Virus record (IMG/VR): IMGVR_UViG_3300036771_000052
Coordinates: 1 to 64,000 of that record
Strand: one strand, 5' to 3'
From: a virus
Length of the DNA: 64,000 nt
Numbering within the stretch: position 1 is the first letter of the stretch; every line of letters begins with the position of its first letter. The notes beneath the pieces are model-generated. The model did no database searches. It was not told where the DNA came from and saw only the letters and a list, made by a program, of their open reading frames with translations. A program made the position numbers and the translations under genes. Of this stretch, positions 35,656 through 63,788 are shown one piece after another.

Positions 35656-37281
35656 ATGGCTGAAATAGATGCCGCAACTACGATCACCCCGAATGTGTCC
35701 ACCGCGGTTACTTACGCGATTTCGCCGGCGTTTGAGGTGGACAGTTCGGGTCCGGTGTTTAATCCGTTGTTGGGGTATTGGCAGTCTGATCCGTTGGTGT
35801 TGCCGGGGAATCCGGTGACGGGGTCGGTGGTGCGGTGGACCGCGAATGTCCCTGTAGGTACGGGTCTTGTGGTGCAGACGAGTATCAATAATGGTGTGTC
35901 GTGGGATTTGGCCACGAATGACCAGTCTGTGCCGCGGCTGCTGAATGGTGATACCACTACGCAGTCGGTGTTGGCGAAGATCACGATGACGAGAGCCACG
36001 AGTCCGTCGTTGTTCCCGAGTCCGTCGTTGTTCCCGAGTCCGTCTTTGTATCCAAGTGGTTCGCCGCCGTCGGTGTCCTACTTCGAATTAGATGTGTCGG
36101 TCGACGCCAGCGTTGACGAGCTGGTCCCGATCGGTGTGGGGATGATTGATGATGTCACCACCCACGCTACAGCCGGTACGTCCGGTTCCGGTTCAACCAC
36201 GAATGTTTCCACCTCTACCAGCGTGGTCAGCCAGGGTGGTGGCCAGTTCGGCGGCGGAGTCGCAATTAAGGTTCATGCTAACGATTTGAGTTACGCGATC
36301 AAAAGGAACGTGTGGCAACAACCATATACGGTTCCTAGTGGATTGTTGTACACCGACGCTATTAAGGCGATGGTGGAGGATCGTTTGCCGTCGCAGACCG
36401 CTTTCAATCTGTCGACCACAACAGCGACTACTCCTCTGTTGGTTTATGGCGCGTCGCAGGGTGGTGATCCGTGGCAGGACATTATGGAGTTGGCGGCGGC
36501 TATCGGGTTCGAAGTGTTTTTCGACGCCACCGGAGTGTGTGTGGTGCGGCCAATTCCCGATCCGGGTATCGGCGACCCGGTGTGGGCTTTTGACGAGAAT
36601 CTTGTTCCGCTGGTAGCGGAGGCGGAATTTGATTTGAGCTCGGAGCAAACATTCAATGACATTGTCGTTGTTGGCCAGTCGACTTCGTCGGCTAATCCTT
36701 TTTCCGGGGAGGCATTTGATAATGACCCAAACTCTCCGACATATATTTTGGGTCCGTATGGTCGGGTCACGCAGCGGGTTAATTCGTCTCTGATCACCTC
36801 ACAGTATCAGGCGCAGGCGATGGCGTATTCCGCTTTGTATGCGTCGCTCGGCGCGGCTAATACGGTGACTTTGACGACTGTTCCGATGCCGGCGTTGGAG
36901 CCGGGGGACATCATCTTCATTGTGTGTTCGGATGTGAAAGCGAACGGCACCTATATGATTAACCATTTGGAAATGCCGCTTTCCCCCGCTGATCCAGCTA
37001 TTTACACGTGTTTCCGCCAGTCTACGAGTGGGACGTTGGGGTTGGCCGGTGCGTTCGGCGTCACCGATGGTGTCACGATTAGTGGTTCCGCGGTGATCAC
37101 GTCCGAGTCCGCGGGCTTCACTTCGGGTGATATTGGTGCGTCGGTTTATGGGGTGGGGATTCCTGTGAATGCGACGATCATTTCGATCACCGATCCCGAT
37201 ACCGCGGTGATGTCGGCGAACGCGACCGCTTCGAACACTGATGTGTATTTGGTTGTGAGTGTCGGTTCCGGCACTCTCTAG
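35656..37281 (+). CDS. C-terminal part of DUF5047-type minor tail protein
   Basis: Residues about 155-470 read like the body of the DUF5047-type tail protein: DELVPIGVGMIDDV, then VAIKVHANDLSYAIKRNVWQ, TDAIKAMVEDRLPSQ, WQDIMELAAAIGFEVFFDA and VTQRVNSSLITSQYQAQAMA. The first 150 residues are a different, probably recruited beta domain, joined by three copies of SPSL(F/Y)P (about 36000-36055). With 32819-33205 it would make one usual minor tail protein. The last 80 residues are Ser/Thr-rich. Confidence 0.75.
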   Translation: MAEIDAATTITPNVSTAVTYAISPAFEVDSSGPVFNPLLGYWQSDPLVLPGNPVTGSVVRWTANVPVGTGLVVQTSINNGVSWDLATNDQSVPRLLNGDTTTQSVLAKITMTRATSPSLFPSPSLFPSPSLYPSGSPPSVSYFELDVSVDASVDELVPIGVGMIDDVTTHATAGTSGSGSTTNVSTSTSVVSQGGGQFGGGVAIKVHANDLSYAIKRNVWQQPYTVPSGLLYTDAIKAMVEDRLPSQTAFNLSTTTATTPLLVYGASQGGDPWQDIMELAAAIGFEVFFDATGVCVVRPIPDPGIGDPVWAFDENLVPLVAEAEFDLSSEQTFNDIVVVGQSTSSANPFSGEAFDNDPNSPTYILGPYGRVTQRVNSSLITSQYQAQAMAYSALYASLGAANTVTLTTVPMPALEPGDIIFIVCSDVKANGTYMINHLEMPLSPADPAIYTCFRQSTSGTLGLAGAFGVTDGVTISGSAVITSESAGFTSGDIGASVYGVGIPVNATIISITDPDTAVMSANATASNTDVYLVVSVGSGTL

Positions 37282-38617: not shown

Positions 38618-41518
38618 ATGGCTATCGCGTTCGTTTCCGTCGGCGCCGTCCCCACTAGCGGCAGCTTCGGCGCCGGTTCCGTTTCTTGTCCGTATCCTGC
38701 TAGTATTGTTGCTGGGGATATTCTGATCCTGTTCGCCGGGATGACTGGTGGCAGCGGAACATGGAACACCCCGTCGGGTTGGACGCTTCAACAAAAAAAT
38801 AACAACATTCTGTCCGATCTTGGTGTGGTGTGTTTCACCAAGGTCGCGTCGGGTAGCGAAACCGGCTCGTTAGTTGTTGGTAACGGTGGCACGGCTGGTG
38901 TTGAGCATGTGTGTATGCTGCTGTATAGCGGCCAAAACTCCACAACACCTATCGGTAACACCGCGCTCGCGGTCAGTACATCCACGAGTACCACATCTCC
39001 CACCCAGGGAACTGTTACACCTGGCGCCAGTGATGTGGTGGTCCGCTGTTACATGGTGGGACAAGTAACAGGTTCCACTACGGGTACGGTCACGTTCCCG
39101 ACCGGAACAACTTGGACATCGCGTCTCAACTTCTTCACAAAAACCTCCAGCCACGTAAACGTCGGCACTATCGTTGTCGATAAAACAGCTGGTACAGACA
39201 CCGAAACAGTTACGGCTAACTCGGCTGGCGCGTGGGGTGTCATCGACGTTGTTATCCAGTCGAGCCTCACAGTGTGGAACGCGGCGGCTTCTTTGGCCGC
39301 TACCGCCGGATTGTCCGCGAACGCGCATGACACACAACACCCGGCGGCGGCGTTCTCAGCGCATGGTGCGTTAGCCGCTACAGCGACGGATCACATTCCG
39401 GCTACAGCGTCGTTGTCGACGCATGCTGGATTGTCGGCTGCCGCGACCGACACTGTTTTCGGCGCTGTTTCGATGTCGGCGACAGCTGGGTTGTTGGCCA
39501 GTTCCGTTTCGCAGTTCGCGGGGTCGGCGTCGTTGTCCGCGTCGGCTTCGTTGTCGACGACAGCCAAAGACATCATTCCTGCTGCCGGGACGCTAGCGGC
39601 TAATGGTTCTTTGTCGGCGACACTAGAGGTTGTTGTCCCCGCCGCGGCGTCACTATCGGCGACTGCGGGGTTAATTTCAGCCGCCACGGTAACCGAGCTC
39701 CCACATGTGGCTCTGTCCACTACGGGGTCGCTATCGGCGACGCCGCGGGCGACCGTCCTACCATCGGCGGCGTTAACAGCCTCTACAGGTCTGTCGTCGT
39801 CGTCTATCGACGCCAGTCACGGAGTGGTCGCGGCTTCGGCTGTGACTGGGTTGTCGGCCGCCGCGAAGATCACCGAATTCCCAGCCGTCTCCTTCACCGC
39901 ATCAGGGTCTTTGACCGCCGCGGTACACGACGCCATCTACCCGATGGTGTCGCTGTCGGCGAACGCAATTATGTCCGTCCCGGCGGAAGACACCACCCTC
40001 CCCGATTCGACATTCACCGCCGCGGCTGGTCTGTCCGTCCTGGCGCATGTCACCGTGTTGGGTTCGGCGCATCTGTCCGCGACAGCGGGACTTACCGCTA
40101 GCGCTCACGCAAGTGTTGTGTCCGCAACAACGCTGTCGGCGACCACAACACTGTCGGCTTCACCTGTCGATACTGTTTCAGCGGCTGTTGTTTTGGCCGC
40201 GCATGGCGGGTTAACGGCGCAACCCACCGACCTCATCCACACGTCAGTAGCGTTCACCGTTTCCGCTGGGTTGACGGCGCACGCGGTTGACATTGTTTAT
40301 GCGGCGGCATCGTTGGCCGCCGCCGGAGGGTTCAGCTCCACCCCAACGGATTTGGCCACAGTTGGTCTGTCCGCTGTTGCTCATTTGTCCGCTGTTGCAG
40401 TCGACACTATCCACGCGGCTGTTTCCTTCACCGCAACAGGGTTGTTGACCGCGACCGGATTCGCCACCGTTCACGGCTTGTGCGCGATGGCCGCCGCAGC
40501 TACTGCGCATGCGTCTTGTCTTGTCAGAACACTCCCAACAGTCGGCTTAACCGCACACGCAGTATTGACGTCTTCCGCAAGGGACGTCACCTTCCCCGCA
40601 GTGGGGTTGTCGACGGCTGCGTCTTTGTTGGCGACGGCTGTTGATGTTGTTCGTCCGCATGTGGCGTTGTCGGCTTCGGCGAGTTTGTTGGCGTCAGCCA
40701 CCGATTCCGTCGGCGGCGCCGTCCACCTAGCGTCAACCGCAACACTCACCGCTAACGCGGTTTCCACTGTTCGACCCGCAACTGTTCTGTCGGCGACCGC
40801 GAACCTCACAGATCGAGCGGTCGACACCACCCGTCCAACTGTGGGGTTGACTGCGTCTGCCGGTTTAGCGGCGACCGCGGAACTCGCTCTCCCCGTCCAT
40901 GCTGTTCTTACCGCATCGGCTGGTTTGGCAACTGTCGCGGTGGATCACATCCTGCCGACGGCTACATTGCTGGCCACCGCCGGGTTGATCGCACACCCAA
41001 TTGTTCGGGTGTTCCCGGCGGTGTTTCTCGCCGCGGCCTCATCTTTTGCTGTTGGGATGGATGTTTCGGTCCCGGCGGCTGTGGTGGCCGCCGCGACCGC
41101 CGCATTGGATGTGACCGCGACACTCGAAGCGGTCAACAGCATCCACATGGCGGCGGGTACTTCATTCACCGCCGAAATGCGGGTGATCGCGGTAGCCGGC
41201 GCCACACTCGCCGCTCAAACCAACATCACCGCGAACCCGCAACTGGATCATTACCCAGTTGCGGTGTTGGGTGCGTTCGCTGCGTTAACCGCAACAGGTC
41301 ATATCCGGTTGTGGGAAGCGTTCTGCAATACACCGCATGTGGTGGCGGGGGTTATCGCGGCGCAGGCAATCGCATTGGCCGTTGTCCGAGCCGCATACGG
41401 CAACCCGGTTGGTGTGACAACCGCCGAGAACGGAACCCCGGTGATACCGGTTCGCGCAGCCACCGGGGTTCCATTGGCTGCCACGGATTCCGGTTCGCCA
41501 TCTCGCGTAGTGCATTAG
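38618..41518 (+). CDS. Fibre-like protein with about 34 repeats of 20 residues
   Basis: 966 residues. Residues 1-220 form a beta domain (GDILILFAGMTGGSGTWNTP; CYMVGQVTG). From residue 224 to about 900 the sequence is an array of 20-residue repeats, consensus (V/A)xLSATAGLSAxAxDTxxPA, then a 65-residue tail (NTPHVVAGVIAAQAIALAVV). Alternating small and hydrophobic residues suggest a beta-solenoid or triple beta-spiral shaft. GGAGGG lies ten bases before the ATG. It is probably a long tail fibre; no adhesin domain is recognised. Confidence 0.75.
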   Translation: MAIAFVSVGAVPTSGSFGAGSVSCPYPASIVAGDILILFAGMTGGSGTWNTPSGWTLQQKNNNILSDLGVVCFTKVASGSETGSLVVGNGGTAGVEHVCMLLYSGQNSTTPIGNTALAVSTSTSTTSPTQGTVTPGASDVVVRCYMVGQVTGSTTGTVTFPTGTTWTSRLNFFTKTSSHVNVGTIVVDKTAGTDTETVTANSAGAWGVIDVVIQSSLTVWNAAASLAATAGLSANAHDTQHPAAAFSAHGALAATATDHIPATASLSTHAGLSAAATDTVFGAVSMSATAGLLASSVSQFAGSASLSASASLSTTAKDIIPAAGTLAANGSLSATLEVVVPAAASLSATAGLISAATVTELPHVALSTTGSLSATPRATVLPSAALTASTGLSSSSIDASHGVVAASAVTGLSAAAKITEFPAVSFTASGSLTAAVHDAIYPMVSLSANAIMSVPAEDTTLPDSTFTAAAGLSVLAHVTVLGSAHLSATAGLTASAHASVVSATTLSATTTLSASPVDTVSAAVVLAAHGGLTAQPTDLIHTSVAFTVSAGLTAHAVDIVYAAASLAAAGGFSSTPTDLATVGLSAVAHLSAVAVDTIHAAVSFTATGLLTATGFATVHGLCAMAAAATAHASCLVRTLPTVGLTAHAVLTSSARDVTFPAVGLSTAASLLATAVDVVRPHVALSASASLLASATDSVGGAVHLASTATLTANAVSTVRPATVLSATANLTDRAVDTTRPTVGLTASAGLAATAELALPVHAVLTASAGLATVAVDHILPTATLLATAGLIAHPIVRVFPAVFLAAASSFAVGMDVSVPAAVVAAATAALDVTATLEAVNSIHMAAGTSFTAEMRVIAVAGATLAAQTNITANPQLDHYPVAVLGAFAALTATGHIRLWEAFCNTPHVVAGVIAAQAIALAVVRAAYGNPVGVTTAENGTPVIPVRAATGVPLAATDSGSPSRVVH
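39287..41320 (+). repeat. 60-bp-period coding repeat (about 34 units)
   Basis: Encodes the 20-residue repeats. Units differ at the DNA level but keep the protein period nearly perfectly; one unit is 18 residues. Codon choice varies between units (GTG/GTC, TCG/TCC), which may limit recombination between them. Confidence 0.75.
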
Positions 41519-46058: not shown

Positions 46059-46424
46059 GTGCCACCTGGAATCAATATCCCAACCAGTGGACCGCTCGCA
46101 TGGATCGTTGTTGTCACGTCGCTCCTTATCGCGTTCGCTCCGCTGATTGTAGCTCATTTCAAAAAACCTGATGCTCATGTTGTGTTGCCGGTGACGGCGG
46201 CGCAACCACAGCTCGACGCGGGTAATGCGTTACTCGCAACCCTGGTGGCTAATTTGGAGAAGCGGACGTCGGCGGCGGAGGACCGAGCCAACGACTATAT
46301 TGGGATAAATAATGAGCTGCGGGAACGTTTAGCTCGCGCGGAGTCTGAGATCGCCGCGTTGAAGAGTGAGATTGCTGTGTTGACCGCTCGTCTTATGGAG
46401 CGAGGAAGGCGTCGGGATGAGTGA
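46059..46424 (+). CDS. Membrane-anchored coiled-coil protein (121 aa)
   Basis: One membrane segment at residues 13-33 (LAWIVVVTSLLIAFAPLIVA) and a charged coiled coil at about 60-115 (NELRERLARAESEIAALKSE). GTG start. Resembles small membrane/coiled-coil proteins near lysis genes that may help disrupt the envelope; role unproven. Confidence 0.7.
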   Translation: MPPGINIPTSGPLAWIVVVTSLLIAFAPLIVAHFKKPDAHVVLPVTAAQPQLDAGNALLATLVANLEKRTSAAEDRANDYIGINNELRERLARAESEIAALKSEIAVLTARLMERGRRRDE

Positions 46425-46947
46425 CGCTAAGGAACCGCTGGAGCTTCACGAGGATTCCCCACCTGCTGATGTCGCCGCGAAAATCGGTGAGCTTTACGCC
46501 GAGGTTGTTCAGAAGATGGTGGAGGAAGCTCCGGCGGTTGCGAAGTTGGAGGCGAAGATTGAGGCCACCAGGATTGTTCGGCGTTGGTATTTGATGGCGG
46601 TGTTGGCGGCGGCGATCGTGTCTCTCACAGTGTCGGCGATGGCGTTGAATATTATTTTGTCTACGCGTACTCAGCAGGCGGCGTGGCATGCCGTTTTCGA
46701 GGCGCGGCAGCAAAACTTCACCAGCGATAAGCAGAAGTTGGCGATGTTGAATGACACGTTGAAAGCGGAGGGGAAAGCGCAGGTCCCGGAGCCGCAAACC
46801 CCTCTGGATGCCACCGCGGCTGTGTCGTTGGCTACTGTGTTGTTGCGGAATGGTCCGGTGTGTCCGGACGCCTCGACGGTGCAGAAGGTTACTTATTCGA
46901 GTGGGGTCACGGGTTGGGGTTGTGTGAACGTACCCCCGAAGCGTTAG
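46417..46947 (+). CDS. Single-pass membrane protein (176 aa)
   Basis: An N-terminal helical part (residues 1-55), a membrane segment at about 58-80 (MAVLAAAIVSLTVSAMALNI) and an outer domain with a coiled coil and two Cys (GPVCPDAS, WGCVNV). Overlaps the previous gene by eight bases; the two could form a complex. Confidence 0.7.
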   Translation: MSDAKEPLELHEDSPPADVAAKIGELYAEVVQKMVEEAPAVAKLEAKIEATRIVRRWYLMAVLAAAIVSLTVSAMALNIILSTRTQQAAWHAVFEARQQNFTSDKQKLAMLNDTLKAEGKAQVPEPQTPLDATAAVSLATVLLRNGPVCPDASTVQKVTYSSGVTGWGCVNVPPKR

Positions 46948-47006: not shown

Positions 47007-47192
47007 ATGCGGCTTCTGGTCGCGGCGGTTCTGGCCGTCGGTGCTCTCGGCGTCGGCGCCGGCAGCGCAACAGCGCATGATTTCCACCGTCATCACCATC
47101 ATTTGGGGTGGCGGCTTGGTGAGGTTGTGCATCATCCGTTCCACCTGTTCCATCCGGATCATCCGGGATTTCATCATGGAGGACATCACTAA
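47007..47192 (+). CDS. Secreted His-rich peptide (61 aa)
   Basis: AGGAAGG before the ATG at 47007. MRLLVAAVLAVGALGVGAGS then ATA is a signal peptide with an Ala-x-Ala site. The mature about 38 residues contain 15 His (HDFHRHHHH; VVHHPFHLFH; HHGGHH), so it should bind Zn, Ni or Cu outside the cell. Its stop overlaps the next ATG as TAATG, coupling it to the secreted protein. No known family. Confidence 0.7.
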   Translation: MRLLVAAVLAVGALGVGAGSATAHDFHRHHHHLGWRLGEVVHHPFHLFHPDHPGFHHGGHH

Positions 47193-48094
47193 TGCGTAAG
47201 GTTTTGTTCGCCGTCCTCGCCATCGTGGTGAGTTTCGGCTTGTCTACGGGTGCGGCGTTCGCGTCGACACCAACCCAAGGCGTCGACTGTTCTACTGGTC
47301 AGAGCGGCCTGGTGAATTTGGGTACAACAACGTGTACTAACACGTCAACCGCTACTGGTTTGACTGGTTTGTTGCCGTCGGTAACTAATCTGTTGGGGGT
47401 TCGCCATCGGCCACGCTGGCCATATCCTGGGTTGCCAGCAGGTTTCCCGTCGTTGTATGACGGGAATCTTCTTCCGCTGTCCGAGCTGGGTTTGACTGGT
47501 GTAAACCAGGATCTAGACGTCTGCGCTTACGGCAATTACAACGCGCTCGACCAGTACGGTCTGAGGACGTATGGCGGTCGTTGGCGTGGTGTCGAGTCAC
47601 GTTGGTTCGCGGTTCAACGCGCTGAGCGCATGGCGGCGTTGCGCGCCGCGGCTGGCTGTGGGAGTACCGCGGTGATTCCGTGGCAGCTCCGTGGGAACGA
47701 ACTGAACCTCGGCTACTACGGCGGTTCCGGTTTCTACAATGTGTGCGAGTCGCCAACGTTCGACGGTTTCCAAGGTGTGTTGCGTCCACGTCTGCGTGGC
47801 GCTTGGCCAGGTTTCGAACGCCACTATTTGGGTGGTTCCCGTGAGGCGTGGCTGAATTCGTTCCGTCAGCTTCATGAGCAGGCGGGTTGTAGTCCGTCGG
47901 TGGTGGTGGTTCCCGGCGCCACCTACGAGCAGCCGCTCATTGAGCAGCCGCAGGTGATCGAACAGCCACAGGTTATCCAGCAGTCGGCTCCGTGTGGGTG
48001 TGCTCCCGTTAGCGCTCCGCCGGTTGTTCAACCTGAGGGTGTTCCGGGTGCGGGGAATTCTGGTTTGGCTCCGGATGCGGTGAGGGTTAACTAA
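47192..48094 (+). CDS. Secreted protein (300 aa), unknown
   Basis: MRKVLFAVLAIVVSFGLSTG then AAFAST is a signal peptide. The mature part has Cys at CSTGQSG, CTNTS, DVCAYGNY, GCGST, NVCES and GCSPS, enough for three disulfides, then a Glu-Gln-Pro tail (EQPQVIEQPQVIQQ) and CGCAP. No sorting signal (LPxTG-type plus membrane helix) is seen at the C-terminus. Directly upstream of the sortase gene, one base apart. Confidence 0.75.
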   Translation: MRKVLFAVLAIVVSFGLSTGAAFASTPTQGVDCSTGQSGLVNLGTTTCTNTSTATGLTGLLPSVTNLLGVRHRPRWPYPGLPAGFPSLYDGNLLPLSELGLTGVNQDLDVCAYGNYNALDQYGLRTYGGRWRGVESRWFAVQRAERMAALRAAAGCGSTAVIPWQLRGNELNLGYYGGSGFYNVCESPTFDGFQGVLRPRLRGAWPGFERHYLGGSREAWLNSFRQLHEQAGCSPSVVVVPGATYEQPLIEQPQVIEQPQVIQQSAPCGCAPVSAPPVVQPEGVPGAGNSGLAPDAVRVN

Positions 48095-48670
48095 ATGCTG
48101 CGGGTCCTTCTTTCGGGACTCGCCGCGCTGGTCGGGGTGTCGATGACGTGGTGCGACCCCCCGGCCTCCCTCGCCGATATGAGTGTGTATCCGACGGGGA
48201 TTCACATCCCCGCTATCGGTGTTGATGGGAATCAACTTATCCCGTTGGGTTTAGCGAAGGACCGCACACTTCAAACCCCACCGTTGTCCACACCACAGAT
48301 TGGTGGCTGGTACACGGGAGCATCAGTCCCGGGTGATCCGGGAACTGCGATAATCATTTCCCACGTGGACGGGGACGGGAAGAAGGGTTTGTTTTACGAT
48401 CTTTCCCGGGTTCAGGTGGGGGACGAGATTTCGGTTGACCGGTCTGATGGTCATATGGCTGTTTTCACGGTCACTAAGGTGGGGTTGTTTTGCAAGGAGA
48501 GAGCCGCGTGTCCCCGGGGGAAGAAAGTTTTTCCTTCCGCGGAGTTTTACTCCACGCAGTCTGAACCGCAACTTCATTTGGAAACTTGTGGTGGCAGGTT
48601 TGATGCGAAAGACAAAAACTATTTGGACGCGTTCGTGGTGTTCTCGACATTGACTGCGAGTTTCGGATGA
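48095..48670 (+). CDS. Class E/F-like sortase
   Basis: Signal or membrane anchor at residues 1-20; the sortase barrel follows: IHIPAIGVDGNQLIPLGL, GGWYTGASVPGDPGTAIIIS, then catalytic His-90 in SHVDG and Cys-165 in LHLETCGGRFD. Sortases join cell-wall or pilin proteins by transpeptidation. The Arg expected after the Cys is not evident at its usual place (NYLDAFVVF). Encoded in a phage late operon between a secreted protein and the lysin, which is unusual; whether it modifies virion, phage-secreted or host proteins is unknown. Confidence 0.82.
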   Translation: MLRVLLSGLAALVGVSMTWCDPPASLADMSVYPTGIHIPAIGVDGNQLIPLGLAKDRTLQTPPLSTPQIGGWYTGASVPGDPGTAIIISHVDGDGKKGLFYDLSRVQVGDEISVDRSDGHMAVFTVTKVGLFCKERAACPRGKKVFPSAEFYSTQSEPQLHLETCGGRFDAKDKNYLDAFVVFSTLTASFG

Positions 48671-49668
48671 TCTTCGATGAGTTGTGGCAGGAGATGCTGT
48701 CCCGGAGGGACCCTCAACACACCACTGAGTTCCTTGCTTCTCCTGGCTTGTATGGGATTGACACTTCGTCGTGGCAGGGGACGGTTCAGTGGTCGGCGGT
48801 CGCGGCGTCGGGTCACCAGCTGGTTTATGTGAAGGCTTCTGAGGGTGCGGGTTTGAGTTACCCGACGTTGGATGCGCAATATCGGGGAGCTGTGGCTGCG
48901 GGGATGAGTGTGGGGTTGTACCACTTCGCCAACCCCGCTTTGACCCCTGAGGCGAACGCTGACGCGTTCTCCACGCAAATCAACAGGTTGGGCGCCACGG
49001 TCAATCATTTGCCGCCAGCGCTCGACCTAGAGATTGGTTCTGGTGACTTGTCGGGGTGGTGTCAAGCGTTCATCGCTCGGCTTCGGCAGCAGATCAACTG
49101 GCAACCTGTGTGTGTCTATTCCGATGCGTCGTTCTTCAAAAACCAGATCGGCGAAGAATGGATGGACGACGATATTGTTTTGTGGATCGCATCATTCAAC
49201 AACAACCCCGGCCACCCGTCGTACATGTCTCCTCGGGTGGCGATCCATCAGTATTCCCAATCCGGGAATGTTCCTGGTGTGGCGGGTGATGTTGACTTGG
49301 ACTTTGCGATCTGGCCGCTCAACCAGCTTATCGGAGATGACGACTTGACCCCGCAAGAATCGCAGATGCTCACCGACATCCACCAAATGCTCCCCGTGAT
49401 CACCTGGCTATACGGCCAATTCGCCGGCCTCGGACCAGACGGCACACCCGCACCATTCCCCGACGTCCCAGGATGGGAAACCCTCCCCGGGGGAACAAAC
49501 CAACACTTGTCATTCCTGGACTACGCTCGACAAGCCAACGTACAGCTAGCCGGGTTGACACAGTCGGTACAAAACATTATTTCCACCTCTGGTGGGACGG
49601 TGGATGCGAAGGGTTTGGCAGATCAGATCGTCGCCGAATTTGTGAACAAAATCCACAACAATGTGTAA
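48667..49668 (+). CDS. Endolysin, GH25 muramidase
   Basis: Residues about 27-225 are a GH25 lysozyme domain: YGIDTSSWQGTVQW, LVYVKASEGAGLSYP, GLYHFANP, the catalytic ALDLEIGSGD and VAIHQYSQSGNVPGVAGDVD. It cuts the glycan strands of peptidoglycan. The C-terminal 100 residues may be a wall-binding part. No signal peptide, so it should need a holin. Overlaps the sortase stop as ATGA. Confidence 0.9.
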   Translation: MIFDELWQEMLSRRDPQHTTEFLASPGLYGIDTSSWQGTVQWSAVAASGHQLVYVKASEGAGLSYPTLDAQYRGAVAAGMSVGLYHFANPALTPEANADAFSTQINRLGATVNHLPPALDLEIGSGDLSGWCQAFIARLRQQINWQPVCVYSDASFFKNQIGEEWMDDDIVLWIASFNNNPGHPSYMSPRVAIHQYSQSGNVPGVAGDVDLDFAIWPLNQLIGDDDLTPQESQMLTDIHQMLPVITWLYGQFAGLGPDGTPAPFPDVPGWETLPGGTNQHLSFLDYARQANVQLAGLTQSVQNIISTSGGTVDAKGLADQIVAEFVNKIHNNV

Positions 49669-49942
49669 CCACATCCCTGAGGGGATGTGGGCCAGGATTT
49701 GGACATGGTTCCTCTCCGCCACGTTGGGGACTTTCGTCGCGGTGGAAACCGTCGCGTTAACCCTCGAAGGTTCCCCCGCCACCCTCTCCGCCTACATCCG
49801 AACAGTGGCGGGATCGGACCCACGCTGCCATCACGTCCACGCCGGACGCCTAGCGCTGCTGGTGATCTTCGGGTGGGCTACCGCTCATTTGGGTTGGGGT
49901 CTGTTCGGGTACGACCCGCATCATCGGAGGAACAGATGCTGA
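49661..49942 (+). CDS. Two-helix membrane protein, holin candidate (93 aa)
   Basis: Starts within the lysin stop region (ATGTGTAA). Hydrophobic segments at about 10-33 (ARIWTWFLSATLGTFVAVET) and 63-82 (ALLVIFGWATAHLGWGLFG), with HHRRNRC at the end. Size, two membrane passes and place after the lysin suit a holin or antiholin. Confidence 0.7.
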   Translation: MCNHIPEGMWARIWTWFLSATLGTFVAVETVALTLEGSPATLSAYIRTVAGSDPRCHHVHAGRLALLVIFGWATAHLGWGLFGYDPHHRRNRC

Positions 49943-50331
49943 AAAAAATTTGGTCCGCTCTCTCGCGTGCGGTGACCCGTAACCCGGTGGTGATCTCGGG
50001 GGGGTTCGCGGCGCTGTTGCAGTTTGTGTCCACCCAGATTGTTCCGTTGACAGTGGACCAGCAGGGAACGCTCAACGCCGCCGTGGTGGCGTTGTTGGGG
50101 TTCATCGCCGCCGCCGCGGTGTCAGAGGAGAAAGCTGTTCCCGCGATCGCCGGACTCGTCCAAGCCGTCCTGGCTGTGGTCCTGGCGTTTGATGTTCACA
50201 TGTCTACGCAGTGGCAGACGGCGGTGATGGCGTTTGTTACGACGGGTGTGGCGATGTTTGTTCATACTCAGGTGACCGCTAGGGGTGGTCCGCCGAGGGG
50301 TCGACACGAGGTTAATTGGATGCGTGGGTAA
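49936..50331 (+). CDS. Four-helix membrane protein, holin candidate (131 aa)
   Basis: GGAGGAACAG before the ATG at 49936; the longer frame is a shadow. Hydrophobic segments VVISGGFAALLQFVST, AAVVALLGFIAAAAV, AIAGLVQAVLAVVLAF and AVMAFVTTGVAMFVHT, then a basic tail. This multi-pass layout recalls holin-like proteins that follow the lysin in many actinophages. Last gene of the late operon. Confidence 0.72.
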   Translation: MLKKIWSALSRAVTRNPVVISGGFAALLQFVSTQIVPLTVDQQGTLNAAVVALLGFIAAAAVSEEKAVPAIAGLVQAVLAVVLAFDVHMSTQWQTAVMAFVTTGVAMFVHTQVTARGGPPRGRHEVNWMRG

Positions 50332-50933: not shown

Positions 50934-50939
50934 GCGCGC

Positions 50940-51108
50940 CTCACCCTTCCGGGGTGGGGCGCTCTTTTTTTGTGCCTAAGAGCGGCCTCAGCGAGTGGCC
51001 AACATCAACATACCGTGTGGCCAAGATCAGATGGCCACCGGGGGTTGGCCGCTATAACGCGACCGTGGCCACCCCACGATGGCCACGGTCATGTGATAGC
51101 GGCCAACA
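50940..51108. promoter_or_regulatory. TGGCCA cluster with 27-bp imperfect inverted repeat
   Basis: No gene is seen. TTGGCCGCTAT-n5-GACCGTGGCCA (51045-51071) faces its complement (51080-51106) across 8 bases; only the central 5 bases fail to pair. (T)GGCC(A) half-sites also occur at about 50998, 51019, 51033 and near 51122. It lies between two leftward genes and looks like an operator cluster, or a strong cruciform/terminator. Confidence 0.6.
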
Positions 51109-58840: not shown

Positions 58841-60007
58841 TTATCGTGAAGATCGCTCGGGACGCGTCAGGGACGCGCCAGCGCGAGCGAAAGCAGCGTC
58901 AACCGCATCCCGAATCCGATACTCCTGACCGGGACGCCGGTGGCCGTAGGTCTTCGCCACCAACGTCGCGTCCTTGTGACCCAAGTACTCAGCCACCGTC
59001 ACCATGTCGATCCCGGCATCCAACAACACCGACGCGTAGTAATGCCGAAGATCATGCGGGGTGGCATCAGCGGGGAACGCCGAGTCCCGCTCATGCAACT
59101 TCAACACGGCGGGATGGAACACCCGATGGTGATATATCTCCCGCGCGTAAGGACGTCCCGTGCTGGCGTGGAACAGCAACCCCTCCCAGCCGGGCCGACT
59201 TCCCGGGGGGAACGTGGCGATATGGGTGGACAGCTCCTCCGCCACCCTCTCCGGCAGCGGGATGGTCCGCTTGCTGTATCTGGTCTTCAGCTTCACCAGC
59301 TCGCCGGTGTCCGGATCGGACTGGCGTCGGATGCGGACCTCGCGGCGGAGGAAGTCAACGTTGTCCAGACACAGTCCGAGCGCTTCCCCGACGCGCAGAC
59401 CGAGGCCGGCTTGAACCACCAAGATGCCTCGATACCGAGGCCGGACGAAATCGATCAGCGACTCCACCTGATCATCTTCGAGGGGGACGACACGTTCGTC
59501 TTCGATCTCCGGGAGATCGATCGACGCGAACGGGTCGTCTTCCAACAGGTGGTCGGCGATGGCGGCGCGGATCGCGCTACGGACCATCCCGGCGATGATC
59601 CGTATCGTTGACGGCGCCAACCGTTCCCGCCGGCTTTTCAGCCACATCTTGGCGTCGGACACCCGGAGTCGGTTCAGCTGGCAGTTCCCGAACGGTGTCC
59701 CCTCAACATGGTTTCTGATGTCGCGTTCGAAGCGGTCGGCGGTCCGCTTGCCGTGGATTTGCATCTTGGACCAGTGGCGCATCCATTCGATGACGGTGGT
59801 TTTGTCGGCGTGGTCCACCCATCGGCCGCGGAGCATGCTGGACTCGATCTCGATGCGGCGTTTCTCGGCGTCACCCTTCTTGGTGAAGCTACCGCCGTCC
59901 TTCTCCCGGCTGTCTTTGCGGTATTTGACTTGCCAGCGCATGCCGGTGTCGCAGCGGTCGGTGGGGCTACCGTCTTTGTTATACCAGCGGTCTTTGACGT
60001 ATGCCAT
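58841..60007 (-). CDS. int: Tyrosine integrase
   Basis: Catalyses attP-attB recombination. Residues about 55-150 form the SAM-like core-binding domain (KTTVIEWMRHWSKMQIHGKR) and the C-terminal 220 the catalytic domain: GLGLRVGEALGLCLDNV (Arg I), HDLRHYYASVLLDAG (H-x-x-R), LGHKDATLVAKTYGHR (His and Tyr nucleophile). An N-terminal AP2-like arm-binding part precedes. AGAGGA sets the start at 60007. Divergent from the excisionase across 25 bases, so one control region serves both. Confidence 0.93.
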   Translation of the reverse strand: MAYVKDRWYNKDGSPTDRCDTGMRWQVKYRKDSREKDGGSFTKKGDAEKRRIEIESSMLRGRWVDHADKTTVIEWMRHWSKMQIHGKRTADRFERDIRNHVEGTPFGNCQLNRLRVSDAKMWLKSRRERLAPSTIRIIAGMVRSAIRAAIADHLLEDDPFASIDLPEIEDERVVPLEDDQVESLIDFVRPRYRGILVVQAGLGLRVGEALGLCLDNVDFLRREVRIRRQSDPDTGELVKLKTRYSKRTIPLPERVAEELSTHIATFPPGSRPGWEGLLFHASTGRPYAREIYHHRVFHPAVLKLHERDSAFPADATPHDLRHYYASVLLDAGIDMVTVAEYLGHKDATLVAKTYGHRRPGQEYRIRDAVDAAFARAGASLTRPERSSR

Positions 60008-60032
60008 CGGTGTCCTCTCATACACTGGGTGG

Positions 60033-61851: not shown

Positions 61852-62415
61852 ATGCCAGGTTTCGATCTACGCGCTCTCGTCAAAGACATCTGTGACAGCT
61901 CGGCGCTGACCAACGATGATGAGCTGACGAAGGAAGTGTTGTCTCAGATCGCGCCGGCCGACGAGCATGCGGCGTTGGAGCAGTCGTTGCCGGCATTCAT
62001 GCAGCGTTTTCTGTCACGGGACCATCGTCCGCTGGCGGCGCCACAGTCAACCCCCGCCAGCCAAGGTGGTACTGATGACCAACCAGGCTCCGCTGGCGGG
62101 GGTCCTCAGCCATTCCGTTCACCGAAAGTCGAAGGCGTCCGTTCCTGGTATCAGGAGTGGAAGAGCCAGTGTGACGGCGCTCGGGTGAACGTTGGCCGGA
62201 ACGAACGCAAGTTCTTCGGGGATTGTACGTTGGAGGATTTGGCGTATATTTCTCAGCATCGGCGTAAGTTGGCGGCGGCGAATCTTGATGCCGCTGACTA
62301 TGTTGATCGGGTTGCTGAGTTGATGCAGAAGCATGGTGTGAAGCTTGCGCGGCAGTTGCCGGAGGATGCGGTTCGCCAGTTGGCTGGCGGTAAGTTGGCT
62401 GGCGGTGCGCAGTGA
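61852..62415 (+). CDS. Array-associated protein A (187 aa)
   Basis: AGAGGAGAAACGCA sets the start at 61852. MPGFDLRALVKDICDSSALT; residues about 65-85 are translated from a hairpin unit; the C-terminal half is helical (VRSWYQEWKSQCDGARVNVG, then LEDLAYISQHRRKLAAANLD). It carries no enzymatic motif. Overlaps the next gene as GTGA. The protein family is not recognised; co-transcription with the array suggests it binds or processes it. Confidence 0.75.
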   Translation: MPGFDLRALVKDICDSSALTNDDELTKEVLSQIAPADEHAALEQSLPAFMQRFLSRDHRPLAAPQSTPASQGGTDDQPGSAGGGPQPFRSPKVEGVRSWYQEWKSQCDGARVNVGRNERKFFGDCTLEDLAYISQHRRKLAAANLDAADYVDRVAELMQKHGVKLARQLPEDAVRQLAGGKLAGGAQ

Positions 62416-62979
62416 CTTCGACGCTCCCAAGGCAGGTCCATCATGACCATGATCTTGCCGGCACCCATAAAGGCGGCGTCGTGGTGGACCCCCAAACAGC
62501 CAGCCAGGACCAAACACCCGGCGATTCCCATACGCGTGGCGTCTTGGCTGGCACTGAGCTCCCCGTCGACCATGGCAAGGTCGACACCCATAACGCGCAT
62601 GTCGGCGGGGTCCTAGACAGTGGCAACGATCAAACTAGATGCGACGACTACGACGGTCCCGTCGTTGCTGCTTCAGATTCCCCGACGACCATCCCGATCC
62701 CGTCCTCCATAGATGGCACGTCGCCGGGGTCTCAATCTACCGTCGACCATACTGAGTGTGATTCCCACCTCGGAACTGTCGACGGTGTGAACGGAACACC
62801 AGGCCAGGCCACGAGAGGAATGAGGTCCAACGATGCCTCGTTTGGTTTGGTGTTCCGTGAATCAGACTCCCCGGCGACCAGCCAGCAGGCGTCATCCATG
62901 GTGAATCCGTCGCCGGGGTCCCAAAACAGCGCCACCGACCATGCCACAACCGAGAACCACGGCCGCCATGTCGGTGGCG
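62051..62979 (+). repeat. Hairpin array, block 2 (10 units inside two genes)
   Basis: Units at 62051-62102, 62435-62490, 62499-62552, 62561-62610, 62619-62672, 62680-62729, 62739-62786, 62791-62858, 62869-62918 and 62930-62979. All ten keep the 10/8/10 spacing of the core. Some stems need G-U pairs, as in GGTCCATCATGAC/GTCGTGGTGGACC, which suggests selection on RNA pairing. The first unit lies in gene 61852, the others in gene 62412. Here the linkers avoid in-frame stops (TCCTCAG, TCTCAAT) where intergenic units have TAA. Confidence 0.88.
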
Positions 62980-63788
62980 TGTTAGACGATCAGTCAGATT
63001 CAGTTACGTCGAAGCGGTCGCTGAATCTGACTGATCCCCTCCTCAGCCTCGCTGCGGACATTGTTGACGACTTGGAAAAGGTTCGCGTAGCTAACGAGAA
63101 CCGACTACGGCAACTCACCCGCAGCGAAGGAGACAAGGACGGTCAGAACCGCGGTTGGGGGTTGGACCTCGACCATCCGGATGTGGCGAGACTCGCCGGA
63201 CTCGTCGACCTGTTGATCGCGGCGGAGAAACAGGCGATTAAGAACCTCGAAATCCACATGAAGCAACACCCGCTGGGTCCGTGGGTGAAGCTAGCGAAGG
63301 GAGTCGGGGAGAAACAAGCGGCTCGACTGCTGGCGGCGATCGGTGACCCGTATTGGAATGAGCTGAAGAATCGGCCGCGGCGAGTAGCGGAGCTCCGATC
63401 GTACTGTGGGTATGGGGATGCGGAGAAGCAGGTGCGCCGTAAGGGTGTGAAGGCGAATTGGTCGGCGGATGCGAAGAAACGCGCATATCTGGTGGCTACG
63501 TCGATCATCAAAGCGGGTGGTCCGTATCGTGAGGTGTATGACCAGGCTCGCGCGAAATATGACGGCGCGGTCCATACGTCGGAGTGTCGGCGGTGTGGTC
63601 CGGCGGGGAAGCCTGCTCTTCCGGGGTCTCCGTTGTCTGCTGGTCATCAGCATGCTCGTGGTTTGCGAGCTATTTGTAAGGCTGTGTTGAAGGATTTGTG
63701 GTTTGAGGCTCGTAGCCTTCATGGTGTCCCCGACGATCAACGGTATCACGATAACCATCAAGCGATCGTCGTCGGGGACTCTAGTTAA
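62412..63788 (+). CDS. Array-associated protein B with IS110-type C-terminal domain
   Basis: 458 residues. GTG start overlapping the stop of protein A; internal starts such as 62899 are possible. Residues about 1-200 are encoded by hairpin units and are low-complexity with repeats (DHGKVDTHNAHVGGVLD). Residues about 210-290 are helical (DIVDDLEKVRVANENRLRQL), then GVGEKQAARLLAAIGDPYWN and VAELRSYCGYGDAEKQVRRK resemble the HhH-containing Transposase_20 domain of IS110-family recombinases; ARGLRAICKAVLKDLWFEAR closes it. The DEDD/RuvC-like catalytic half is absent. It probably binds nucleic acid, perhaps the hairpins. Confidence 0.75.
   Translation: MTSTLPRQVHHDHDLAGTHKGGVVVDPQTASQDQTPGDSHTRGVLAGTELPVDHGKVDTHNAHVGGVLDSGNDQTRCDDYDGPVVAASDSPTTIPIPSSIDGTSPGSQSTVDHTECDSHLGTVDGVNGTPGQATRGMRSNDASFGLVFRESDSPATSQQASSMVNPSPGSQNSATDHATTENHGRHVGGVLDDQSDSVTSKRSLNLTDPLLSLAADIVDDLEKVRVANENRLRQLTRSEGDKDGQNRGWGLDLDHPDVARLAGLVDLLIAAEKQAIKNLEIHMKQHPLGPWVKLAKGVGEKQAARLLAAIGDPYWNELKNRPRRVAELRSYCGYGDAEKQVRRKGVKANWSADAKKRAYLVATSIIKAGGPYREVYDQARAKYDGAVHTSECRRCGPAGKPALPGSPLSAGHQHARGLRAICKAVLKDLWFEARSLHGVPDDQRYHDNHQAIVVGDSS
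62988..63036 (+). repeat. 16-bp perfect inverted repeat inside protein B gene
   Basis: GATCAGTCAGATTCAG pairs with CTGAATCTGACTGATC over a 17-base loop. It directly follows the last unit of block 2, lacks the core motifs, and marks the junction between the hairpin-encoded N-terminus and the conserved C-terminal domain. Confidence 0.7.

What the first reader, a model, noticed from the sequence alone, without database searches (positions are those of the whole stretch)
48095..48670. Sortase encoded in a phage late operon
A complete sortase barrel with His-90 and Cys-165 lies between a secreted protein and the lysin. Sortases are host enzymes as a rule. Possible roles are change of the host surface late in infection or in lysogens, or joining of a phage-secreted protein to the wall. 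The expected Arg is not at its usual position and no LPxTG-type partner is seen, so activity is uncertain.
Basis: partly seen in the sequence, partly recalled or inferred. Interest (0 to 1): 0.75.

Follow-up and report, generated by a model that had tools for sequence, protein, structure and literature searches.

The report
Phage wall-anchoring enzyme with dedicated partner
This virus of (probably) an actinobacterium carries its own sortase, the kind of enzyme bacteria use to fasten proteins onto their cell wall, next to the gene for a secreted protein whose conserved tail looks like the enzyme's target; the same two-gene unit recurs in dozens of uncultured phages and appears undescribed, although its activity is untested.

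Summary
Confirmed. ORF 48095-48670 encodes an intact class F sortase (NCBIfam class F 8.5e-42; AlphaFold pLDDT 90; PDB Z about 16, sortases only) with His90 and Cys165, translationally coupled to a secreted-protein gene and the GH25 lysin. It is a long-standing phage gene: three large relatives of this phage (106-122 kb) carry the same pair beside the lysin, even where the lysin is a different enzyme; dN/dS is about 0.16-0.21 (dS near saturation); the sortase falls in an all-phage clade. Across 37 further IMG/VR contigs plus a 100-kb phage, the gene before the sortase encodes a signal-peptide protein ending in VPxG[G/A]xxTGGG (chosen blind to the motif, 21 of 32 match against 27 of 758 other genes). 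Bacterial class F partners carry the same core (NCBIfam 'GVDTG sorting domain') followed by a membrane helix and basic tail; most phage partners lack both. The window's tail (PEGVPGAGNSGLAPD) is a lineage-conserved variant with Ala for Thr, and its sortase has His for the near-invariant Arg at Cys-4. Best reading: late wall-anchoring of a phage protein; activity and role unproven. No such gene in 50,697 GenBank phages, PHROGs or BFVD.

The parts
48095..48670 (+). class F sortase, 191 aa; N-terminal hydrophobic segment then sortase barrel (about residues 33-191)
48362..48364 (+). His90, invariant (catalytic His)
48587..48589 (+). Cys165, invariant (catalytic Cys, in LETCGG)
48575..48577 (+). 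His161 in place of the near-invariant class F Arg at Cys-4; shared with sister phages G443, G444, G446
48497..48523 (+). 9-residue insert in the region before beta7 (between K134 and F146), shared with G443 and G444 only; Cys133 and Cys139 flank or lie in it in the window and G443
47192..48094 (+). probable sortase substrate, 300 aa: signal peptide, two similar alpha/beta repeats (about 85-160 and 165-233), disordered Pro/Gln-rich stalk, C-terminal tail
48032..48076 (+). putative sorting tail P281-EGVPGAG-NSGLAPD295 of the substrate, conserved in sister phages
47007..47192 (+). small His-rich secreted protein; homologue in G443
46417..46947 (+). membrane protein; homologue in sister phage G444, and its C-terminal segment resembles genes just upstream of the pair in L118, L123, L127, L140
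48667..49668 (+). GH25 endolysin, start codon overlaps the sortase stop
49687..50331 (+). holin (phrog_9752)
50936..50962 (+). strong intrinsic-terminator-like hairpin (12-bp stem, T-run), the only strong candidate after the pair; probable operon end

Best explanation
The gene is a phage-lineage class F sortase that works as a two-gene unit with the secreted protein encoded just upstream (47192-48094). Both are exported late in infection from the lysis operon. The membrane-bound sortase recognises the substrate's C-terminal tail (family core VPxG[G/A]xxT-G; here PEGVPGA-G), forms a thioacyl intermediate through Cys165 assisted by His90, cuts before the Gly and passes the protein to an amine acceptor, most likely the peptide of lipid II/peptidoglycan. 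The result would be a phage-encoded protein covalently displayed on the host wall on a Pro/Gln-rich stalk. Unlike classical sorting signals, most phage substrates have no membrane helix or basic tail after the motif, so soluble exported protein must be captured directly. Shown here: enzyme family, fold, operon, partner conservation, tail motif and its statistics. Inferred: catalysis, the cut site, the acceptor, timing, and the biological purpose. The purpose is most likely to alter or mask the infected cell's surface shortly before lysis, so that receptors or debris do not take up further or progeny virions.
For: Sortase fold and catalytic residues. Translational coupling with partner and lysin, one strong terminator at the operon end. 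Pair conserved in three large sister phages next to the lysin slot, even where the lysin differs; in the two nearest, sortase 52-53% and substrate 41-43% identical. The C-terminus is among the best conserved parts of the substrate. dN/dS about 0.16-0.21. Tail motif on the upstream partner in 21 of 32 phage loci against 27/758 other genes, p 2e-20. Same core plus membrane helix beside bacterial class F sortases, matching NCBIfam NF058571 'GVDTG sorting domain' over cut-off in L095. Wall-protein-like architecture of the substrate.
Against: The window substrate has Ala, not Thr, before the scissile Gly (as do G444, L115, L120; G443, G446, L129 have Thr). The near-invariant Arg at Cys-4 is His. 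No experimental activity. The motif p-values are not corrected for relatedness. TM-less signals are not, to my knowledge, known to be used by sortases.
Confidence: 0.6

Rival explanations
1. Lysogenic conversion: the phage is temperate, and the pair is expressed in lysogens to change the host surface (superinfection exclusion, adhesion), not during lysis.
For: Tyrosine integrase at 58841-60025. Several sortase-bearing contigs appear to come from isolate genomes (inferred from IMG identifiers). Bacterial homologues are ordinary chromosomal genes.
Against: The pair is translationally coupled to the lysin, with no promoter of its own found (sigma-70 consensus only). In L126 it lies between terminase and portal, i.e. 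among late genes.
Confidence: 0.25
2. The enzyme has lost or changed transpeptidase chemistry: with His in place of Arg at Cys-4 and a new loop it acts as a processing protease (cuts the partner tail and releases it), or as a binding protein.
For: His161 and the insert are lineage-specific. The T to A change in the partner tail occurs in the same lineage. Phage partners lack a membrane helix.
Against: Cys165, His90, Thr164 and Tyr176 are retained under purifying selection. The Thr form of the tail persists in G443 with the same His.
Confidence: 0.2
3. Recently captured host sortase gene with no phage function.
For: Class F sortases are common in actinobacteria, several per genome.
Against: All-phage clade, conservation in sister phages, GC like the phage (0.55 against 0.57 window), low dN/dS.
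Confidence: 0.03
4. The partner is joined to the virion or to another phage protein rather than to the host wall.
For: The acceptor is unknown. The partner gene sits near structural genes.
Against: Both proteins have export signals, and virions assemble in the cytoplasm.
Confidence: 0.05

Closest known systems
Class F sortases (NCBIfam NF033748; first studied in Cutibacterium/Propionibacterium acnes)
   Same: Sequence family, fold, His and Cys, Arg at Cys-4 in most relatives
   Different: Phage-encoded; below the family's curated score; His at Cys-4; lineage-specific insert; coupled to a lysin gene; dedicated TM-less partner. C. acnes SrtF is reported to use LPXTG (PMC13257024)
NCBIfam NF058571 GVDTG_CTERM sorting domain proteins
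   Same: PxGGVxTG core beside class F sortases; matched over cut-off by L095
   Different: The known domain includes a membrane helix and basic tail; most phage partners end 1-9 residues after TG, and the window tail has A-G
Bacterial class F sortase neighbours in Actinoplanes (AMIS_11010, AMIS_36440; PMC13251363)
   Same: Adjacent secreted protein, suggested by the authors as possible substrate without a classical motif
   Different: Those have a C-terminal membrane segment and basic stretch; the quadruple class F deletion gave no phenotype
Class A sortase / LPXTG anchoring
   Same: Same fold and Cys/His chemistry (inferred)
   Different: beta8 Arg not conserved; no LPXTG; no membrane helix in the partner
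Phage late surface-masking proteins such as T5 Llp (from memory, not tested)
   Same: Proposed purpose: block receptors late in infection
   Different: Llp is a lipoprotein; here covalent wall anchoring is proposed

Membership tests
Sortase superfamily (PF04203) | Significant match to the sortase profile and sortase beta-barrel fold | tested here: met
   PF04203 6.8e-15, over cut-off; PDB matches sortases only at the top, Z 16.4
Sortase superfamily (PF04203) | Catalytic His and Cys in place | tested here: met
   H90 and C165 invariant in 38 sequences
Sortase superfamily (PF04203) | Active-site Arg | tested here: inconclusive
   No conserved Arg on beta8 in the class F sequences aligned. Arg at Cys-4 in 81 of 89 rows, His in the window. 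R116 is invariant within the lineage, but no coordinates were available to measure distances
Class F sortase (NF033748) | Best match to class F rather than to other classes | tested here: met
   class F 8.5e-42, class E 1.8e-5
Class F sortase (NF033748) | Score over the curated cut-off (166 bits) | tested here: not met
   142.4 bits. Sister phages score 131-158, so this is a divergent class F-like branch
Class F sortase (NF033748) | Transpeptidase activity | not testable with these tools
   needs enzymology
GVDTG sorting-domain protein (NF058571), for the partner | PxGGVxTG core | tested here: inconclusive
   Phage partners at large carry it. The window has PEGVPGAG and does not match the profile
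GVDTG sorting-domain protein (NF058571), for the partner | Membrane helix and basic tail after the core | tested here: not met
   Window tail ends 12 residues after AG with no hydrophobic stretch
Prophage moron / lysogenic conversion gene | Own promoter and terminator, not in a late operon | tested here: not met
   Abutting/overlapping start and stop codons with partner and lysin; no convincing promoter before the pair, sigma-70 type only

The most novel reading that the evidence does not exclude
A phage-borne protein-anchoring system, widespread in uncultured actinophages and undescribed in the sources searched: a dedicated class F sortase and a dedicated soluble substrate with a membrane-helix-free C-terminal sorting tag, tied to the lysis cassette or head genes. 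It would covalently coat the host cell wall late in infection, and would show that sortase substrates need no membrane retention.
Probability: 0.5. Interest if true: 0.85.

Novelty: new variant of a known kind. Interest (0 to 1): 0.76.

Why it matters
Sortases are regarded as cellular enzymes. None was found in 50,697 annotated phage genomes, in PHROGs, or by fold in the viral structure library, although the same query finds bacterial plasmid sortases. A recurrent phage sortase/substrate pair would be a new way for phages to rebuild the host surface. It gives class F sortases, whose physiological role is unknown, a testable substrate motif, and it challenges the rule that a sorting signal needs a membrane helix. 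A TM-less tag with its own enzyme could also be useful for protein ligation.

Tried and rejected
Single-protein scans of IMG/VR with the sortase and with the secreted protein found nothing; only alignment-based scanning worked. 40 contigs sharing the capsid gene had no sortase, but those I checked were fragments that do not reach the lysis region, so this was not used as absence. The prophage relative in G221 has no sortase on its contig. The whole 97.9-kb record was searched for classical sorting signals (LPxTG-like with membrane helix and basic tail): none convincing. The 966-aa repeat protein 38618-41518 ends ...VIPVRAATG..., but it has no real signal peptide and is probably chance. Recent host remnant rejected. 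An initial reading of the window tail as VPGAGNSG was replaced by PEGVPGAG after sister sequences were found. PDB fold search with the substrate model gave nothing (low-confidence model). Literature searches for phage sortases found no report; one paper mentions sortase domains among metagenomic lysin predictions as probable noise (PMC13237592).

Full report
WHAT IS THERE. The window is the first 64 kb of a 97,861-base IMG/VR virus record. ORF 48095-48670 (+) is an intact 191-aa sortase: PF04203 6.8e-15; NCBIfam class F 8.5e-42 against class E 1.8e-5, but 142 bits against a cut-off of 166. An AlphaFold model on 22 sequences has mean pLDDT 90. Its best PDB matches are sortases only, VIA Z up to 16.4. 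It is the only sortase domain in the record. Composition is that of the phage (GC 0.55 against 0.57).

OPERON. Gene order is 45651, 46059, 46417 (membrane or coiled proteins), a small His-rich secreted protein (about 47007-47192), a signal-peptide protein (47192-48094), the sortase (48095-48670), a GH25 lysin (48667-49668) and a holin. TAATG, TAAATG and ATGA junctions couple them translationally. The only strong terminator-like hairpin after the pair is at 50936-50962. The phage also has a tyrosine integrase, so it is probably temperate.

NOT A HOST REMNANT. A scan with the tail gene 35656-37281 found close relatives. The three long ones (106, 120 and 122 kb) all carry a class F sortase; the three without are 23-40 kb fragments. 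In all three the sortase follows a signal-peptide protein and lies beside the lysin gene, although in two of them the lysin is not GH25-like. Window sortase identity to G443 and G444 is 52-53%, dN/dS about 0.16-0.21, with dS near saturation. In a tree of 38 phage and 51 bacterial sortases the window lies in a three-phage clade (99) inside a seven-phage clade (90).

THE PARTNER. An alignment-based scan of IMG/VR found 37 more contigs with class F sortases, besides L081. Phage hallmarks were verified next to the pair in several: terminase and portal in L126 and L137, endolysin in L140, holin in L120. L115, L120 and L129 share structural genes with the window (mostly 37-50% identical). Not every contig was verified, and a few (L124, L133-135, L138, L139, L145, L148) could be other elements. 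The gene just upstream encodes a signal-peptide protein ending in a conserved tail, e.g. VPVGGVETGGGPAA (L117), IPSGGVNTGGGPA (L127), VPVGGVATGDGSSL (L119). With the upstream gene chosen without looking at the tail, 21 of 32 match P-x(3,6)-TG in the last 25 residues, against 27 of 758 other genes (p 2e-20) and 4 of 68 signal-peptide-like others (p 4e-10). These p-values ignore relatedness. Five of the 32 proteins in A3 have an Excalibur domain.

BACTERIAL COUNTERPARTS. In 30 class F loci drawn from 60 actinobacterial genomes, 14 have an adjacent secreted protein with the same core followed by a membrane helix and basic tail, and 2 have a tail without helix. In non-redundant phage loci 22 lack the helix and 3 have it (Fisher p 2e-6, uncorrected; doubtful antisense or distant hits left out by hand). 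NCBIfam calls this the GVDTG sorting domain, matched over cut-off by the partner in L095. So the core is a curated class F-associated sorting signal, and loss of the helix is the phage-typical form. It also occurs in a few bacterial loci (L091, L094, L100).

THE WINDOW'S OWN VERSION. The partner proteins of G443 and G444 are only 41-43% identical to the window's, but the three tails align without gaps: QPEGVPGAGNSGLAPDAVRVN, VPEGPPNTGDSGLAPDARWVD, VPQYAPSAGDSGLAPDTVRVN. The window has Ala before the Gly. The partner model is low confidence (52.7) but shows two similar domains and a disordered stalk before the tail, the layout expected of a wall protein.

ACTIVE SITE. Across 38 sequences H90, K134, T164, C165 and Y176 are invariant. 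No Arg is conserved after the Cys where class A has its catalytic Arg. Instead Arg at Cys-4 occurs in 81 of 89 sequences; window, G443, G444 and G446 have His. By analogy with SaSrtA Thr180 (from memory) this position lines the substrate groove. The change is therefore lineage-fixed and may go with the altered tail, rather than showing decay. No coordinates were available to test this.

NOVELTY. tblastn against 50,697 GenBank phages finds nothing with the window, L081 or a bacterial class F query, while the same window query finds 36 plasmid records. PHROGs: no hit. BFVD: no fold match at E<=1e-3. No paper describing phage sortases was found, with the limit that only open-licence papers are held.

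MECHANISM AND LIMITS. Shown: family, fold, operon, conserved pair, tail motif. Inferred: catalysis, cut site, acceptor (peptidoglycan), late timing, purpose. For purpose I favour masking or altering the surface of the infected cell shortly before lysis (about 0.35), then lysogenic conversion (about 0.25). Wall stabilisation against premature lysis is a further possibility.

Noticed in passing
58841-60025 (-): Tyrosine integrase (PF00589, 1e-19): the phage is probably temperate.
   Followed up: partly
62412-63788 (+): Strong match (9e-100) to PHROG 4285 'transposase' but no Pfam hit.
   Followed up: no
47007-47192 (+): Tiny secreted His-rich protein (HDFHRHHHH...) just before the substrate gene; homologue in sister phage G443. 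Possible metal binder.
   Followed up: no
38618-41518 (+): 966-aa protein made of many short AxLSAxAxLxAxA-type repeats, ending VIPVRAATGVPLAATDSG; relatives in L120, L115, L129, L184 and L196.
   Followed up: no
G000 79920-81689 (L083:15920-17686): LAGLIDADG endonuclease-like domain inside a 589-aa protein; possible intein or homing insertion.
   Followed up: no
G000 73527-74450 (L083:9527-10447): Polynucleotide kinase/phosphatase (PNKP-like), an end-healing enzyme; homologue in the prophage-like contig G221:C29.
   Followed up: no
L117, L118, L119, L121, L126 and others, sortase N-termini: Many phage class F sortases (and some bacterial ones) carry a lipobox (LxGC), i.e. look like lipoproteins; the window's is degenerate (MTWC).
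   Followed up: partly
L126:7312-8486: The secreted protein/sortase pair sits between terminase and portal genes, with no lysis gene recognised nearby.
   Followed up: partly
L091, L094, L100 (actinobacterial chromosomes, two of them Pseudonocardiaceae): Bacterial class F pairs with helix-less tails (IPRGGVDTGG...) that group with phage sortases in the tree; possibly domesticated phage genes or the source of the phage form.
   Followed up: partly
L081:11483-13450: Ferric-reductase/FAD-NAD oxidoreductase-like gene (judged by eye) in a 100-kb phage contig between lysin and the sortase unit.
   Followed up: no
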